64,000 nucleotides of DNA, taken from NCBI RefSeq assembly GCF_003076275.1, contig NZ_CP029064.1:2800501-2864500 (forward strand). Direction: 5' to 3'. Source of the stretch: Microbulbifer sp. A4B17. Its GTDB lineage: Bacteria; Pseudomonadota; Gammaproteobacteria; Pseudomonadales; Cellvibrionaceae. The position numbers and the translations under genes are program-made. Shown here in pieces: positions 22,010 to 48,044 of this stretch; within the stretch, counting starts at the first letter, position 1, and every line of letters begins with the position of its first letter. The notes beneath the pieces were generated by a model, which was not told the DNA's origin, searched no databases, and worked only from the letters and a program-made list of their open reading frames with translations.

Positions 22010-22693
22010 TCATTTTAGCAATTCTTGGAAGTCTATTAGACTCCTAAGATACGCTCGCATCTCAGGCGTATCAAACTGCCCCTTATAGCGATCAGGTGCA
22101 TCAAGTGACCGCCCTTTAATGCCGGGACAGCCTCCGAAACGAATTAGCGTTGAAAATGCCGGCATTGACTGCATTTCTTCAATTGCAGCCTTAATCTTCA
22201 GATCCAAATGATCAGAGTACTCATCAACATATCGAGAAATCATTCCCATCCCGGTCAAAGTTTGCGAGCAAACCATGTTCCCTACCGTTCCAAATTTGGG
22301 AAAACGGTGGACTGCCTTGAAATCCAATTTATCAAAAGCAGACAATAAATTGTCTCCCAATACCAGCTCAGCAAACTCTACATGATCCCCTTTTTTCGGT
22401 TTGTTGCCTGTCACTTGATAGTGAAGTGCCTCAAAGGGAACAAACAGATTGCTCCAACCCTTTTCAATCTTTGAGATTGCATATTCCTTATAAGCTGCCT
22501 TTTCCTGATATTTATCGACAGTCTGAAAGATAGAAAGCGCCAGACCAACAACCGCCACTCCAGCTGCAATACCACCTGTTCTGGTCACCCTCCTCAGGCC
22601 AACTTGAGCTTCATCCCATGTCTTTCCATGAATCGCTAAAAGAGCTGCAATAGCGGTTAGTGCATGCCCTAAAATAGAAATAGTCAGATCCAT
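22010..22693 (-). CDS. Orphan membrane protein, function unknown
   Basis: This unrecognised 227-residue protein begins after a strong AAGGAGGG site. Hydrophobic segments near residues 5-22 (ISILGHALTAIAALLAI) and 40-60 (GGIAAGVAVVGLALSIF) are followed by a soluble, mixed-charge region of about 165 residues. It is convergent with the Tse2-like gene 85 bases away, so it is not an operon partner, and any immunity role would be guesswork. Nothing in the sequence suggests an enzyme. Confidence 0.75.
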   Translation of the reverse strand: MDLTISILGHALTAIAALLAIHGKTWDEAQVGLRRVTRTGGIAAGVAVVGLALSIFQTVDKYQEKAAYKEYAISKIEKGWSNLFVPFEALHYQVTGNKPKKGDHVEFAELVLGDNLLSAFDKLDFKAVHRFPKFGTVGNMVCSQTLTGMGMISRYVDEYSDHLDLKIKAAIEEMQSMPAFSTLIRFGGCPGIKGRSLDAPDRYKGQFDTPEMRAYLRSLIDFQELLK

Positions 22694-38699: not shown

Positions 38700-40057
38700 T
38701 GCTGGGTACCTCTAGTACTCGCGGTCACAGGTTGCTCATCATCGACCACAGAAACTGCCATGCCGTTAATCGCAGGAATAACATCAGTCACAATAACCAT
38801 CTCACCGGGATTCAACCCTTCGCGGATCACAGTAGTATCCCCTTGGTGGTAATCTATCTGTACAGGGCGTACTCGTAATTGCCCATTTTCTATCAGATAA
38901 ACTTTGCCCTCGTGCAAAGCACTACGGGGTATTGCGAGCACCGGAGTCGCGGGAGCCAATAACTCTACGCGGGCATACATACCGCGAAACAACGGTGGTT
39001 TTTTACCGGTCAGCGCTTTGCCATAAGGATCGTCTACCGCAACGACAACGGAGAGCGTTCGACTGGTACTATCAAGAGTCCCGCCCAAGCGCACGACTCT
39101 TCCCTGCCATTCACTGTCCCCCGGGCCACCGACCAGAGAAATCCGCGCATCCAGACCCAGCAGCATTTTGGGCAAGTCATCTGGGGTTGGATTGGAATCA
39201 ATGCCCGGTCTTAGGTTACGCAATAGTGGGGCTACATGAACCATGGGAAGCTCTGCTGCAATTTCTACTTGGGCAAGGCCGCTTGCATCAAATAGGCGAG
39301 CATTGCCGGCAACATATTGGTTTTCCTCTACATGAACTTCGCCAATACGAGCATTAAATGGCAGGATCACCTGGGTGCGCTCCAGGTTGTATTTACTGTC
39401 CCGTACCTGAGCTTCAGAACGAGCTATCTGGGCTTCAATCACTTTACGGCGAGTCGGGAAAAGGGAAAGCTGGCTGCTCTGGTTTTGCACTTCTTGGCGC
39501 AAGCGCAACATATTTTGCTCTTCAATATCTACAGTCGAGCGGGAGACGGTTCCCTTAGCAACCAACTTTTGCTTGCGAGCGAGTTCTTTCTCACCCAATT
39601 TGAGAGTACGCTCGGCTATTTCCAGAGAGCGTTTACTATTTGTCTCCTCCACATCCAACTCTTGCAAGTTAGCGCGGTTTGCAGCCAGGTCGCTTTCCGC
39701 CTGGGCCAGGGCAAGCTGATAGCTGGTGTCGTCAATCTTCAGCACCAATGTACCGGCGGAGATAATATTTCCCCGCTCCAATTCCGGAGCTGTATATACC
39801 ACCCTGCCACTGACTTCTGCATTGGCTTCCAGGAAAGTACTGGGCTTCACCTCCCCATATGCAATGGCTTGAGCTCGTAACGGTAACTCCTGCACTTTTA
39901 TTGCGTCTACCGTCGTTATAGGAGCCGTGATCGCATCGTGTTTAGGCTCACCTTTAGTGGCGACCAGGGCCATAGATACAACTACCCCCACCGCAATCAG
40001 TGCCGGTAATGCTAGCCGGCGATTCATCAGTGCTTTCATATGAGTCTTAATTTCCAT
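38696..40057 (-). CDS. Periplasmic adaptor (membrane fusion protein) of RND pump
   Basis: The 453-residue HlyD/AcrA-type adaptor has an N-terminal membrane anchor (LALPALIAVGVVVSMALVA), biotinyl-lipoyl halves (VSGRVVYTAPELERGNIISAG and NARIGEVHVEENQYV) flanking a long coiled-coil hairpin (about residues 118-215), then beta-barrel and membrane-proximal domains. It bridges the inner-membrane pump and TolC. The start at 40057 has GAGGAAG 7 bases upstream and lies inside the end of the tetR gene (11-base overlap), so tetR, adaptor and pump form one coupled operon. Confidence 0.94.
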   Translation of the reverse strand: MEIKTHMKALMNRRLALPALIAVGVVVSMALVATKGEPKHDAITAPITTVDAIKVQELPLRAQAIAYGEVKPSTFLEANAEVSGRVVYTAPELERGNIISAGTLVLKIDDTSYQLALAQAESDLAANRANLQELDVEETNSKRSLEIAERTLKLGEKELARKQKLVAKGTVSRSTVDIEEQNMLRLRQEVQNQSSQLSLFPTRRKVIEAQIARSEAQVRDSKYNLERTQVILPFNARIGEVHVEENQYVAGNARLFDASGLAQVEIAAELPMVHVAPLLRNLRPGIDSNPTPDDLPKMLLGLDARISLVGGPGDSEWQGRVVRLGGTLDSTSRTLSVVVAVDDPYGKALTGKKPPLFRGMYARVELLAPATPVLAIPRSALHEGKVYLIENGQLRVRPVQIDYHQGDTTVIREGLNPGEMVIVTDVIPAINGMAVSVVDDEQPVTASTRGTQQ

Positions 40058-40739
40058 TGCCGACTTCCTCGCCTTTGGTCATAGATTTATTGGAAACACC
40101 ACGGAGTAACAGTTGAACGGTATGGTTAATCCATCTCTCCCCACTTTCCTCCCCCAGAGCAAAGCCAAATTCCTCCTTAAAACGGGCGCCAGCAATAAAG
40201 GGGAAGGCAATCAAACTGGAAAAAGAGATTGGCATCAGGTCAATATCCAGATCCTCTCGCAACTGGCCGCTGGACTGGAGGATTTCCAGTAGCCCGCGCA
40301 GCTTAGGCACCAGTTTTGAGGCCAACCTGTCGGCAAAGAGTTCACGCATTCGGCCAGATTTGGAAGCTGCTTCATCAACAATCAGGCGAGGAATCCATGG
40401 CTCCTTGATATATAGTCGTATCATTCTGCTCATTGCTTCTCTCAGTAATTCTAAAGTGGGCTCCCTCCCATCCAGCCCTGCACTGATGAAAGCGGGGCCG
40501 TACTGCATAATTTGGCTCTGAATTACCTCGATAATCAGCCCTTCCTTGCCGCCAAAGTGGTAACTGATCATCGCAGAATTCACCCCTGCCCCTTGGGCAA
40601 TCTCCCTGATAGAAATATCACGAAAGGCCTTATCCCGAAGTAGTGTGTAGGCTGAATGCATAAGCGCTTCGCGCACCTGGGATTCACGCTCAGGATCTTT
40701 TGGGCGCCCGCGGCCACGGGTGGATGGCTTATCAGTCAA
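40047..40739 (-). CDS. TetR/AcrR-family repressor of the efflux operon
   Basis: The 230-residue product has a TetR DNA-binding domain (DISIREIAQGAGVNSAMISYHFGGKEGLI, about residues 40-70) with a basic N-terminal tail (RGRGRPKDPERE) and a helical ligand-binding C-terminus. It heads the adaptor-pump operon, with a perfect inverted repeat just upstream of its start codon, the usual arrangement for autorepression lifted by a pump substrate. The ligand is unknown. Confidence 0.93.
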   Translation of the reverse strand: MTDKPSTRGRGRPKDPERESQVREALMHSAYTLLRDKAFRDISIREIAQGAGVNSAMISYHFGGKEGLIIEVIQSQIMQYGPAFISAGLDGREPTLELLREAMSRMIRLYIKEPWIPRLIVDEAASKSGRMRELFADRLASKLVPKLRGLLEILQSSGQLREDLDIDLMPISFSSLIAFPFIAGARFKEEFGFALGEESGERWINHTVQLLLRGVSNKSMTKGEEVGNGN

Positions 40740-40751
40740 AGAAACATACCC

Positions 40752-40775
40752 TTAATTAATCAAGCGATTAATTAA
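40752..40775. promoter_or_regulatory. TetR-type operator
   Basis: TTAATTAATC, four-base AAGC, GATTAATTAA is a perfect 10-bp inverted repeat, 13 bases upstream of the tetR-family start codon. Size and symmetry fit a TetR dimer site. It should control tetR, the adaptor and the pump together. Confidence 0.85.
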
Positions 40776-41121
40776 ATGCCAGAAGCCGCCCAGATACAAG
40801 CTCAGTTTATGACTAATCGGTCAGCAGTTAGAGTGATTACCGTTTGGTAGCGAGGAATTGTCGATTCAATCTGGCAAGCCGCCCCTCTAAGACAGGAATC
40901 GGGTTTTCTCTACTTTCCTAATGGAACTTGGTGACCCAATGATCTGCGACATATATCCGCAGCAAATAGGCAAATCCGCCTGTCGTTGCACGCAGCCCGG
41001 TAGACTGAAAGCATCAAAAAGTTGGCCCGTCATAATGTTACAACATTACCTGTGAGGACCTTTTAGGAGGCACGGTGTAAAATTTACGGTAAACACCGCC
41101 AGCGCTCTATATCTACCCAAT
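40776..41121. other. Intergenic region with a second palindrome
   Basis: No gene is seen. TAATGTT (41033-41039), AC, AACATTA (41042-41048) is a perfect 16-base palindrome in a region that could hold the promoter of the efflux operon or a site for another regulator. Its owner is not known. Confidence 0.5.
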
Positions 41122-41505
41122 CTACGAAAAGGCTCCACGACGGAAGTTGTATACAGCCACCTGAGAAAGAATAAATAGTGTAAATGTCACTATCAAGCCA
41201 GTCAGCATTACGGGTTCATAGCCCTCAACCAATACAGAAATTACTCGTGAAGAACCATTAAATAGGAAGTACACCGAGGCAGGAAGTATTAATAACCACT
41301 CTTTGCGAAACGCTCCTATTGCCGTAATGATAGCAAGGCTAAGTGTCGGAGCACCAAGGGTACGTAGATTGGTGAAACCATAATTAGTTGTGGCATCAAA
41401 TCCAGCGAGGCCATTAATGATCTCAGGGAAAAGCATAGTCACTAAGCCTGCTAAACCCAATACAAGTACAAATATACCGGAAAGAAATTGTGAGAAACGA
41501 ATCAT
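41122..41505 (-). CDS. Four-helix membrane protein, DUF4345-like
   Basis: The 127-residue product has four hydrophobic segments (residues 6-27, 49-67, 69-88, 97-120) and the spacing NLRTLGAP, AFRKEW, FNGSSRVISVLVEGYEP, which resembles DUF4345 proteins. No function is established for that family. It is monocistronic, with no partner close by. The assignment is by pattern only. Confidence 0.72.
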   Translation of the reverse strand: MIRFSQFLSGIFVLVLGLAGLVTMLFPEIINGLAGFDATTNYGFTNLRTLGAPTLSLAIITAIGAFRKEWLLILPASVYFLFNGSSRVISVLVEGYEPVMLTGLIVTFTLFILSQVAVYNFRRGAFS

Positions 41506-42164
41506 ATTAAATACTCCATTTGGTTGGTAAAGCGAAAAGATTGAGTATTTGAATACCTTCTGAAAATTTCCTTATTATCTCTACTAGGCTTTCAGGGGCT
41601 CCTTAACTTGGATAGCCGCCGGAAATAGGCCAAAGCGATGTTCCTAATCGACCGTATCAAGCTTCACTATTCATTGATTACATAGGGGCCAGAGTGATTT
41701 GCGTTAGAGCTTCCAGCAAAGAACCGTTGCCCTACTGCCCATTACTTAAATGATATAAGTAGTAACTTGCAGCCCAATTGGACTTTTGGCTCCACTTTCA
41801 GTGTTGCTATTCAGGATCATTAGAATCCACGAATAATCGCGTTTATTGTCCTTTTCAACAGGCATCAACAAGTAAAGAATAGTGAACGATTTATATGCAA
41901 CGCAGGTATCAGTTGTAGCTCGCGCTAGGAAGGTACCAATCAGACCTCTAGGGTGATAACTAATGCGCTTCGGGCAAAAAATAGAACCAATATCACAATT
42001 TGCTTCAGCAGTGAGAATATATTCATTCTTTAGCCCCTCAGTAACAAGAGGGTTTAAATATAAGGACATATCGGTGAAGACGTACGCTGTTAAAACAAGG
42101 ACTAGGTTAAGCGGTAAGTCAACAATTCACTTGAAACATCCAGTCAAGGATTTGTACAAATCCG
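41506..42164. other. Intergenic region, only weak open frames
   Basis: About 660 bases. A 107-codon minus-strand frame (41746-42069) and an overlapping plus-strand frame lack ribosome binding sites and family resemblance, so I do not call them. Confidence 0.45.
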
Positions 42165-43052
42165 TCAAATCGCCTTTTTACGCATTTGGGAAGGGGCTAC
42201 TTGGTAGTGCTGTTTAAACACCCGGGAGAAGTAGCTAAGCTCGTCAAAACCGCACTCCAAAGCAATCTCTGTCAGGCTAAGATCGCTATTTAGAATCAAC
42301 CTCTGTGCTTTCTCCATTCGTTTCGAAGCAATATATTTCGTGGCACTGCAGCCATAGACTTGCTTGAATTTACGAGTAAATGTTGACTCACTCATATGAC
42401 AAAGAAAAGCTAGATCCGCCAGTTTCAGCGAAGTGTACAAGTGAGCTTGCACCACTTCCTGTAGCTTAGGTTGCTGCCTGATGAACAGCTGCCCCAACAT
42501 CTTGGCAACTCTTCCACTACTATCAAGCCTGGGGATAAGCTCTACTAATTCTCGAATCTTTAATACCACCAGTGGCTCACTGAATACTTCTGACTTCTGG
42601 ATATAGTCAATTATGCTACGCATATAATTGGAGAGCAGTACAGATTCCTGCAGGCACTCAGCCGACGGGTGCTGCTTGAGGGTCTTATTACTCTCTTTAA
42701 CAACACTCCTACTTTCACCATTATTACCAAAGACATCAGGCATACCATTTGGGTAGAGTCGCTGTAATAGCTATGACGTTAGCCGAAAACCGATGAAATT
42801 AATTTCATTGTTTATTCCACCTTCACGCCACTGATTAATAAAATTATCTGTCTTCATTAGCACAGTAACACCTGGGCTCAAGGTGAGGGTTTCATCACCA
42901 CAAACCAGGGTTGAACAGCCACTGATGACGTAAACAAGCCTTGCCTCATCAACCAAACGGCCTTGATAACTTAACGATGCCCTGAATTTACGCTGACCAA
43001 GTACCATTTTTCCTTGTATTTTAAATACAACTGATTCTTCACTATCTGGCAT
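42165..43052 (-). pseudogene. AraC-family regulator broken by one in-frame TAG
   Basis: Two parts lie in the same reading frame: 43052-42774 encodes an AraC N-terminal cupin-like half (VYVISGCSTLVCGDETLTLSPG, ending GFRLTS), and 42743-42165 encodes the C-terminal half with both HTH motifs (LKLADLAFLCHMSESTFTRKF; LSLTEIALECGFDELSYFSRVF). The nine codons between them (LLQRLYPNG) also make sense, and only a TAG at 42771-42773 interrupts 295 otherwise open codons. A CAG-to-TAG change would explain it. The second half could still start at the ATG at 42743. Sequencing error cannot be excluded. Confidence 0.88.
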
Positions 43053-43362
43053 AAATTATTATCTTTATCAGGGACTTAGTCATTTGTAATAAAACATGAA
43101 GCACATCAGCTTTTCAATCAGAGAAAACGACCAATCGAAAGTGATAACCAAAGCTTCTCCGGCAGGGAATCAAGTTAAATCCAGGGGTGATAAAGAACAT
43201 ACACTACAAAGAATCTTCTAACCTAAGAGACTCAAAAGCCTCTGAAATGAATAAAACAACTTAATTTTTATCGGCACCATCTATTATCGCAATATATCTG
43301 GAATCGGGTTTTACATTACCGAACTAAAACGAGCACCTCCACAAAGTTATTTCTAGAAGTTG
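43053..43362. other. Intergenic region, no gene seen
   Basis: About 310 A+T-rich bases between the VOC gene end and the AraC pseudogene start. Nothing supported is seen. Confidence 0.45.
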
Positions 43363-43728
43363 CTACACCACCGCGTTAACTTCCACCTTATTCCCTACCG
43401 GATCAAAAAATACTAATTGCCGTACATTGCGCCCGGGCACATCCATTAGGTGATTGGCGACTCCCAACGCATCCAGACGCTGCTTAACCGGCTCAAGTGC
43501 ATCTGCACGAAAAGCAATATGGTCCAGGTAGGGCCTCTCAGGCTGCTCATCACTTACTTCATCATCAATCAGGTGCAAAATAGCCCTGCCATTGCCATAG
43601 AGCCAGAACCCATCATTCTTGAAGTTTGGCCTATCACCCTCAATGAGACCAAGCACCTGTATATAGAAGTCTCGCACCCGTTTAAGAGTTTTCATTGGGG
43701 CGGTAATATTGACGTGGTCGAGTTCCAT
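43363..43728 (-). CDS. VOC-superfamily (glyoxalase-fold) protein
   Basis: The 121-residue product has two beta-alpha-beta-beta-beta halves: MELDHVNITAPMK with a probable metal-ligand His5, and LDHIAFRADALEP with a His, ending in VFFDPVGNKVEVNA with a Glu ligand. Such single-domain VOC proteins include dioxygenases, glyoxalases and fosfomycin-resistance-like enzymes. The substrate is not readable. It lies 65 bases after the CoA-transferase on the same strand and is probably co-transcribed, hinting at a role in the same catabolic step. Confidence 0.9.
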   Translation of the reverse strand: MELDHVNITAPMKTLKRVRDFYIQVLGLIEGDRPNFKNDGFWLYGNGRAILHLIDDEVSDEQPERPYLDHIAFRADALEPVKQRLDALGVANHLMDVPGRNVRQLVFFDPVGNKVEVNAVV

Positions 43729-47240: not shown

Positions 47241-48044
47241 ATGAAGAAAGAAGCAAAGAAGGCAAGCAAGTACGTTGCCCGTGAGCCCAATGAAGACGGC
47301 TTTATCGAGTATACCGACCTTGAACACCAAACTTGGCAGCGTCTGATTGAACGCCAACTGGATGTCTTACCTGGCCGCGCCTGCGATGAATATATGCACG
47401 GCCTGGAGCTGTTGGACCTACCGAAAGACCGCATACCCCAACTCGAGGAAATCTCCAGCGTGCTGCGCAGAGAAACTGGCTGGGAAGTCGCCCGGGTTCC
47501 CGCCCTTATCGGCTTCGAAACCTTTTTCGGTCTTCTAGCGGATCGTAAGTTCCCAGTTGCTACCTTTATACGCACTCCCGAAGAGTTTGATTATCTGCAG
47601 GAACCGGACATCTTCCACGAGATTTTTGGCCACTGCGCCATGCTCACCAACCCAGCATTTGCAAACTTCACGCAAAAATACGGACAACTGGGCCTTAAAG
47701 CCTCGCCTAAAGAACGCGCCTATTTAGCCCGCCTCTATTGGTTTACAGTGGAGTTCGGCCTACTGAACACCGACGATGGTTTGCGCATTTACGGTGGCGG
47801 CATTCTGTCTTCCCCGAAAGAGACACTCTACGCACTGAGTCACCAACCAGAGCGCTACGATTTAGACGCGGTTACCGCACTGCGCACCCCATATCGCATC
47901 GATATTGTTCAACCCATTTACTATGTCCTCAACAGCTTGCAACAACTGCAGGAACTGACAGAAATTGACCTGATGGCCAAGGTCCGCGAGGCTATTGAGC
48001 TGGGACTATTCGAACCCCGCTTCCCGCCCAAAGACGCAGCCTGA
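47241..48044 (+). CDS. phhA: Phenylalanine-4-hydroxylase
   Basis: This 267-residue non-heme iron enzyme uses tetrahydropterin and O2 to make tyrosine from phenylalanine. The iron ligands are clear: HEIFGH (His126, His131) and YWFTVEFGL (Glu171). Flanking IRTPEEFDYLQEPDIF and GGGILSSPKET are conserved in bacterial PhhA. Length is normal for the bacterial catalytic-domain-only form. It is divergent from the TyrR-type regulator, which probably activates it. The pterin dehydratase gene phhB is not adjacent. Confidence 0.97.
   Translation: MKKEAKKASKYVAREPNEDGFIEYTDLEHQTWQRLIERQLDVLPGRACDEYMHGLELLDLPKDRIPQLEEISSVLRRETGWEVARVPALIGFETFFGLLADRKFPVATFIRTPEEFDYLQEPDIFHEIFGHCAMLTNPAFANFTQKYGQLGLKASPKERAYLARLYWFTVEFGLLNTDDGLRIYGGGILSSPKETLYALSHQPERYDLDAVTALRTPYRIDIVQPIYYVLNSLQQLQELTEIDLMAKVREAIELGLFEPRFPPKDAA

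What the first reader, a model, noticed from the sequence alone, without database searches (positions are those of the whole stretch)
42165..43052. AraC regulator interrupted by a single in-frame TAG
Both halves of an AraC protein lie in the same frame with only a TAG (42771-42773) between them; the codons after the stop continue the family pattern (LLQRLYPNG). This is either a very recent nonsense mutation, a sequencing error, or readthrough. The C-terminal half retains both HTHs and could be expressed alone as a constitutive DNA-binding fragment.
Basis: seen in the sequence. Interest (0 to 1): 0.55.

Follow-up and report, generated by a model that had tools for sequence, protein, structure and literature searches.

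The report
Regulator gene cut by nonsense mutation
A rarely found AraC-type gene regulator in a marine bacterium carries a single stop codon in its middle where its closest relative has an intact gene, so it is most likely an ordinary, fairly young broken gene rather than a new way of reading the code.

Summary
One 296-codon frame (43052 to 42165) is interrupted only by TAG at 42771-42773, codon 94. One of 47 other genomes of the genus holds an intact ortholog (92% identical) with GAG (Glu) there; five of six distant homologues have Asp. So the best reading is a GAG-to-TAG nonsense mutation, not the predicted CAG-to-TAG. No amber-suppressor tRNA was found (incomplete scan), TAG ends 7 of 40 window ORFs, and 0 of 7 aligned homologues are split there: readthrough is unsupported. 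The C-terminal ORF keeps the two-HTH domain, without amino-acid difference from the relative, but has no obvious Shine-Dalgarno and lacks the first part of the regulatory domain; a working fragment is possible but unshown. The relative carries 9.8 kb with an RHS-repeat gene just upstream where the window has 301 bp; a third genome keeps an RHS piece there, so the window's lineage probably lost it. Most likely an accessory regulator being lost. A sequencing error cannot be excluded without reads. Ordinary; low interest.

The parts
42165..43052 (-). interrupted AraC-family regulator gene, 296 codons including the final stop
   Evidence: full-length match to intact ortholog in G034
42771..42773 (-). 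in-frame TAG, codon 94; GAG in the ortholog of G034
42774..43052 (-). first 93 codons: beginning of the N-terminal regulatory domain
   Evidence: alone it hits no Pfam family at E 0.001
42165..42743 (-). downstream ORF from ATG (codon 104), 192 aa, possible restart product; no obvious Shine-Dalgarno before it
42513..42938 (-). ExsA_N regulatory domain match (residues 39-180), cut by the TAG
   Evidence: coordinates computed from residue numbers
42177..42401 (-). HTH_18 match (residues 218-292), two HTH motifs, intact
   Evidence: no amino-acid difference from G034 in residues 174-295
43071..43371 (.). 301 bp upstream of the gene where G034 has 9.8 kb with an RHS-repeat gene; the part next to the gene is still weakly alignable to G034
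41100..42600 (.). approximate tract of low divergence from G034 (39 differences in ten 150-bp bins, 2.6%), holding the DNA-binding half of the gene and the ORFs downstream
41122..41505 (-). 127-aa predicted small membrane protein downstream on the same strand; shares the gene's rarity, possible target (inference)

Best explanation
A rarely found, probably horizontally acquired AraC-family regulator has been inactivated in this lineage by one GAG-to-TAG nonsense substitution at codon 94. Translation ends after 93 residues, within the N-terminal regulatory domain, and full-length regulator is no longer made. The gene probably became dispensable when the neighbouring RHS locus was lost, or because it was an accessory gene to begin with. 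Shown: the stop, its place, the intact ortholog with GAG, the missing upstream locus. Inferred: the direction of change, loss of function, and the link to the RHS loss.
For: One in-frame TAG only. Intact 295-aa ortholog with GAG at codon 94 in G034, 1 of 47 other genus genomes. At that alignment column 5 of 6 further homologues have Asp and one (the 18%-identical one) Ala, none a stop. Codons 1-93 show past constraint between the two genomes (dN/dS 0.14) and 174-295 no replacement (0 against 5 synonymous), so the gene was probably functional for most of the time since the two copies parted. Of 18 scorable replacements the G034 residue is nearer the outgroups in 14 and the window's in 4 (5 more had no outgroup residue), as expected if constraint has weakened in the window. 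No suppressor tRNA found. The RHS locus beside the gene in G034 is absent here, with an RHS piece at that site in G021. It is the only clear mid-gene stop I recognised when G034 ORFs were compared with the window (60 matched stretches above 70% identity, 15 flagged for a stop or short coverage).
Against: The DNA-binding domain shows no decay at all. The lean of replacements towards the window is not special to this gene: VOC 12 to 3, TetR 14 to 8. Only one close relative is available, so the direction GAG to TAG rests on it and on distant homologues. Without reads a base error cannot be excluded. The order of events (RHS loss, nonsense) is unknown, and an independent RHS gain in G034 and G021 is not excluded.
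Confidence: 0.72

Rival explanations
1. The C-terminal ORF (residues 104-295) is translated by restart at the ATG that lies 27 nt behind the TAG and acts as a DNA-binding fragment freed from its regulatory domain.
For: Intact HTH_18/HTH_AraC; ATG at codon 104 close behind the stop; residues 174-295 identical to G034 with 0 replacements against 5 synonymous changes. Reinitiation is considered frequent in bacteria (PMC5972666, passages read). The DNA-binding domains of other AraC-family members can bind DNA and recruit RNA polymerase (said in PMC4552939, passages read).
Against: No obvious Shine-Dalgarno before codon 104; Met104 is shared with G034 but Leu in 6 of 6 other homologues aligned; no promoter-like site in excess of chance in 41100-43400 (6 found, 4.6 expected); the conservation largely measures the time before the stop arose, and the domain lies in a tract of low divergence anyway. 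In ExsA the N-terminal domain mediates dimerisation, which stabilises DNA binding (PMC4552939, passages read), and the fragment lacks much of that domain.
Confidence: 0.13
2. Sequencing or assembly error, or a polymorphism private to the sequenced clone; the species gene is intact.
For: A single base change; no reads available; rest of the frame open.
Against: The genome is one contig, 100% complete by the tool's estimate, and the difference is a substitution, not the insertion or deletion typical of long-read errors (recalled); no other clear mid-gene stop recognised in the parts of the window that could be compared with G034.
Confidence: 0.12
3. Programmed or suppressor-driven readthrough of TAG makes a full-length regulator.
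For: Same frame on both sides; family residues resume straight after the stop.
Against: None of 54 tRNAs found has anticodon CTA (150 of 236 candidates scored, so incomplete); of 8 pattern hits for a CTA tRNA one is tRNA-Arg(TCT) and seven are no tRNA by ARAGORN; TAG is the stop of 7 of 40 hand-picked window ORFs; the relative has a sense codon.
Confidence: 0.03

Closest known systems
Nonsense-inactivated bacterial pseudogene
   Same: one premature in-frame stop, intact ortholog in a relative, accessory gene, neighbourhood rearranged
   Different: only one lesion so far; DNA-binding domain untouched
AraC/XylS-family regulators with an ExsA-type N-terminal domain (Pfam ExsA_N + HTH_18)
   Same: domain order and both HTH motifs when the frame is read through
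   Different: no NCBIfam model reaches its cut-off among the 25 best of 35 shown and solved-structure matches are to the DNA-binding part or the stretch next to it; best full-length relatives outside the genus are in Bacteroidota; nothing seen links it to type III secretion

Membership tests
AraC/XylS-family regulator | C-terminal DNA-binding domain of about 100 aa with two HTH motifs | tested here: met
   PF12833 5e-25 and PF00165 2.6e-24, two stretches
AraC/XylS-family regulator | N-terminal regulatory/dimerisation domain joined in one chain | tested here: not met
   only in the read-through frame and in the relative; in the window the TAG cuts the ExsA_N match
Pseudogene by nonsense mutation | premature in-frame stop where an ortholog has a sense codon | tested here: met
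   TAG against GAG at codon 94
Pseudogene by nonsense mutation | loss of function | not testable with these tools
   needs expression or binding data
Amber readthrough / recoding | tRNA reading UAG | tested here: inconclusive
   none found, tRNA inventory incomplete: 150 of 236 candidates scored
Amber readthrough / recoding | stop conserved at the same place in homologues | tested here: not met
   0 of 7 aligned homologues have a stop there

The most novel reading that the evidence does not exclude
The nonsense mutation is adaptive: it uncouples the DNA-binding half from its sensor, and the restart product from codon 104 is kept as a shortened regulator or competitor, explaining why the DNA-binding domain shows no replacement while the N-terminal half drifts.
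Probability: 0.07. Interest if true: 0.4.

Novelty: new member of a known kind. Interest (0 to 1): 0.13.

Why it matters
If right, it is one more example of an accessory regulator decaying next to a lost RHS locus; useful as an annotation note (interrupted gene, with a C-terminal ORF that an automatic annotation may list as an intact short AraC protein). It does not change any general view.

Tried and rejected
Altered code or suppressor: searched tRNAs and a CTA pattern in the own genome, nothing found. Two naturally separate genes: the 7 aligned homologues are single ORFs. Rfam and tRNA features in the window: none at the thresholds used. Selection for the C-terminal fragment: dN/dS was suggestive at first, but the divergence profile showed that this half lies in a tract of low divergence running into the downstream ORFs, so it does not separate a selected fragment from a young mutation. 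Promoter and terminator scan: not above chance (6 against 4.6, 1 against 2.0). Plasmid search for the 127-aa neighbour: no match. Paper searches: no paper on this gene among the rows listed; nothing usable on restart after nonsense codons in lacI, which I recall but could not cite. My notebook entry 2 speaks of '13+' genomes with a lyase at the site; that was not counted and is wrong: I saw the lyase in six.

Of the homologues found, the Persicobacter (L085), Paenibacillus (L013), G584 (L087) and the other rows (1,692 plasmid records matched, 15 listed) were not put into alignment A2.

Full report
Observation. On the minus strand, 43052 to 42165, one frame of 296 codons is interrupted by TAG at 42771-42773 and ends in its own stop. 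Read through, it is a 295-aa AraC-family protein with HTH_18, HTH_AraC and ExsA_N matches; the TAG lies within the ExsA_N match (residues 39-180), well before the HTHs (218-292). The finding does not say that the gene is on the minus strand; the plus strand shows no such frame.

Relatives. The genome is one contig of 5.04 Mb; the next best match in it is 35% over the C-terminal part. A search of 48 genus genomes (own included) found a match at E 1e-20 or better in 2: the own genome and G034, 92% identical and uninterrupted. In an order-wide sample 2 of 390 (own included) matched at 1e-25, the other, G145, at 40% over residues 138-291; in a phylum-wide sample with alignment A1, 2 of 398 (own included) at 1e-35. 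Those two searches scored only six candidates or fewer per genome in the rows listed, so they may miss some. A scan of named genomes gave two loci: a Saprospiraceae MAG (38%, nearly full length) and a Paenibacillus (31%, C-terminal part only). Among the 15 plasmid rows listed of 1,692 records, the best E-values are from Bacteroidota: Aureibacter, Flammeovirga, Persicobacter and Spirosoma. This patchy spread suggests horizontal transfer (inference). The genus is probably Microbulbifer: the contig length of G045 equals the size given for M. variabilis in a table of PMC12388028 (passages read).

The codon. G034 has GAG (Glu) at codon 94. In alignment A2 the outgroup residues at that column are D, D, A, D, D, D; the Ala belongs to the least similar sequence, 18% identical.

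Divergence. Window and G034 copies differ at 51 codons, one of them the stop; there are 23 amino-acid differences, all in residues 26-173, none in 174-295. dN/dS is 0.14 for codons 1-93, 0.44 for 95-173 and 0 for 174-295 (0 replacements, 5 synonymous). Against six outgroups the G034 residue is nearer in 14 of 18 scorable differences (sign test p = 0.03); 5 of 23 had no outgroup residue. This points to weakened constraint in the window lineage, but neighbours lean the same way (VOC 12 to 3, TetR 14 to 8; CoA-transferase 2 to 2), so it is weak evidence. The divergence profile is a mosaic: 2.6% over roughly 41100-42600, 9-12% in the first half of the gene, and 12-18% over about 40050-41100 on the other side. 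The conservation of the DNA-binding half is therefore partly that of its tract.

Neighbourhood. From 18 bp upstream of the start codon on, G034 has 9.8 kb where the window has 301 bp. It holds a 2430-aa protein with RHS, FG-GAP and SpvB matches and a 202-aa ORF without a Pfam match. The bases upstream of the gene are still alignable between the two (score 149.5 against 90 +/- 9 for 200 shuffles, maximum 113.5). G021, more distant, has a piece of about 0.5 kb matching that RHS gene (55-67% protein identity) behind its VOC gene, on a contig that ends soon after. Presence is therefore probably older and the window lost it; separate gains are not excluded. In four other genus members a PLP-type lyase (name recalled from its sequence) lies between the TetR and VOC genes (L064-L067), and two more show it beside one of them (L070, L072); these genomes gave no match to the regulator. 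The 127-aa downstream ORF matches in 3 of 48 genus genomes (own included): the pair that has the regulator, and G043 at 52% elsewhere.

Readthrough and restart. Of 54 tRNAs found by Rfam, whose places were all scanned by ARAGORN, none has anticodon CTA; the search scored 150 of 236 candidates and some tRNAs I would expect (such as Ile-GAT) did not appear, so a gap remains. A CTA-tRNA pattern gave 8 hits against 61 for its reversed control; one is tRNA-Arg(TCT), the other seven are no tRNA by ARAGORN. TAG ends 7 of 40 hand-picked window ORFs. The first ATG in frame after the TAG is codon 104, 27 nt behind it, with no obvious Shine-Dalgarno. ExsA, after which the Pfam family is named, dimerises through that domain, which stabilises DNA binding; the same paper says that the DNA-binding domains of other family members can bind DNA and recruit polymerase (PMC4552939, passages read). 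So a constitutive fragment can neither be assumed nor excluded.

Control. Comparing ORFs of 120 aa or more from the G034 stretches with the window gave 60 matched stretches above 70% identity; 15 were flagged. By my reading against the ORF list these are: the AraC gene; ten stretches antisense to longer genes (one ORF counted twice because two loci overlap); two cut by the window's end; one with a longer N-terminus in G034 (22010-22693); and a phenylalanine-hydroxylase-like gene (47241-48044) that ends 15 codons earlier than in G034. The AraC gene is the only clear mid-gene stop. About 23.5-30.6, 30.9-35.6 and 50.9-54.6 kb of the window had no nucleotide match in the G034 stretches fetched and were not controlled.

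Verdict. An ordinary nonsense-interrupted accessory regulator, most likely a young pseudogene; a sequencing error or a surviving C-terminal fragment are the live alternatives.

Noticed in passing
L016:4294-12195 (G034), site equals window 43071-43371: A 2430-aa RHS/FG-GAP/SpvB-type protein gene with a 202-aa ORF behind it sits beside the regulator in the relative and is missing at this place in the window.
   Followed up: partly
window 41100-42600: Tract of unusually low divergence from G034 between more divergent flanks, as after recombination.
   Followed up: partly
window 43363-43728: The VOC (glyoxalase-like) gene shows many more window-side than G034-side amino-acid changes (12 to 3, outgroup G021) with near-equal nucleotide counts (29 to 27).
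   Followed up: no
window 41746-42069: The 107-aa ORF behind the regulator has 6 replacements to 2 synonymous differences from G034 and no Pfam match; possibly not a gene.
   Followed up: no
L063:286-358 (own genome 144285-144357): Lowest-scoring tRNA of the list (44.2 bits), called Ser with the unusual anticodon ACT.
   Followed up: no
window 47241-48044: Phenylalanine-hydroxylase-like gene ends 15 codons earlier than in G034.
   Followed up: no
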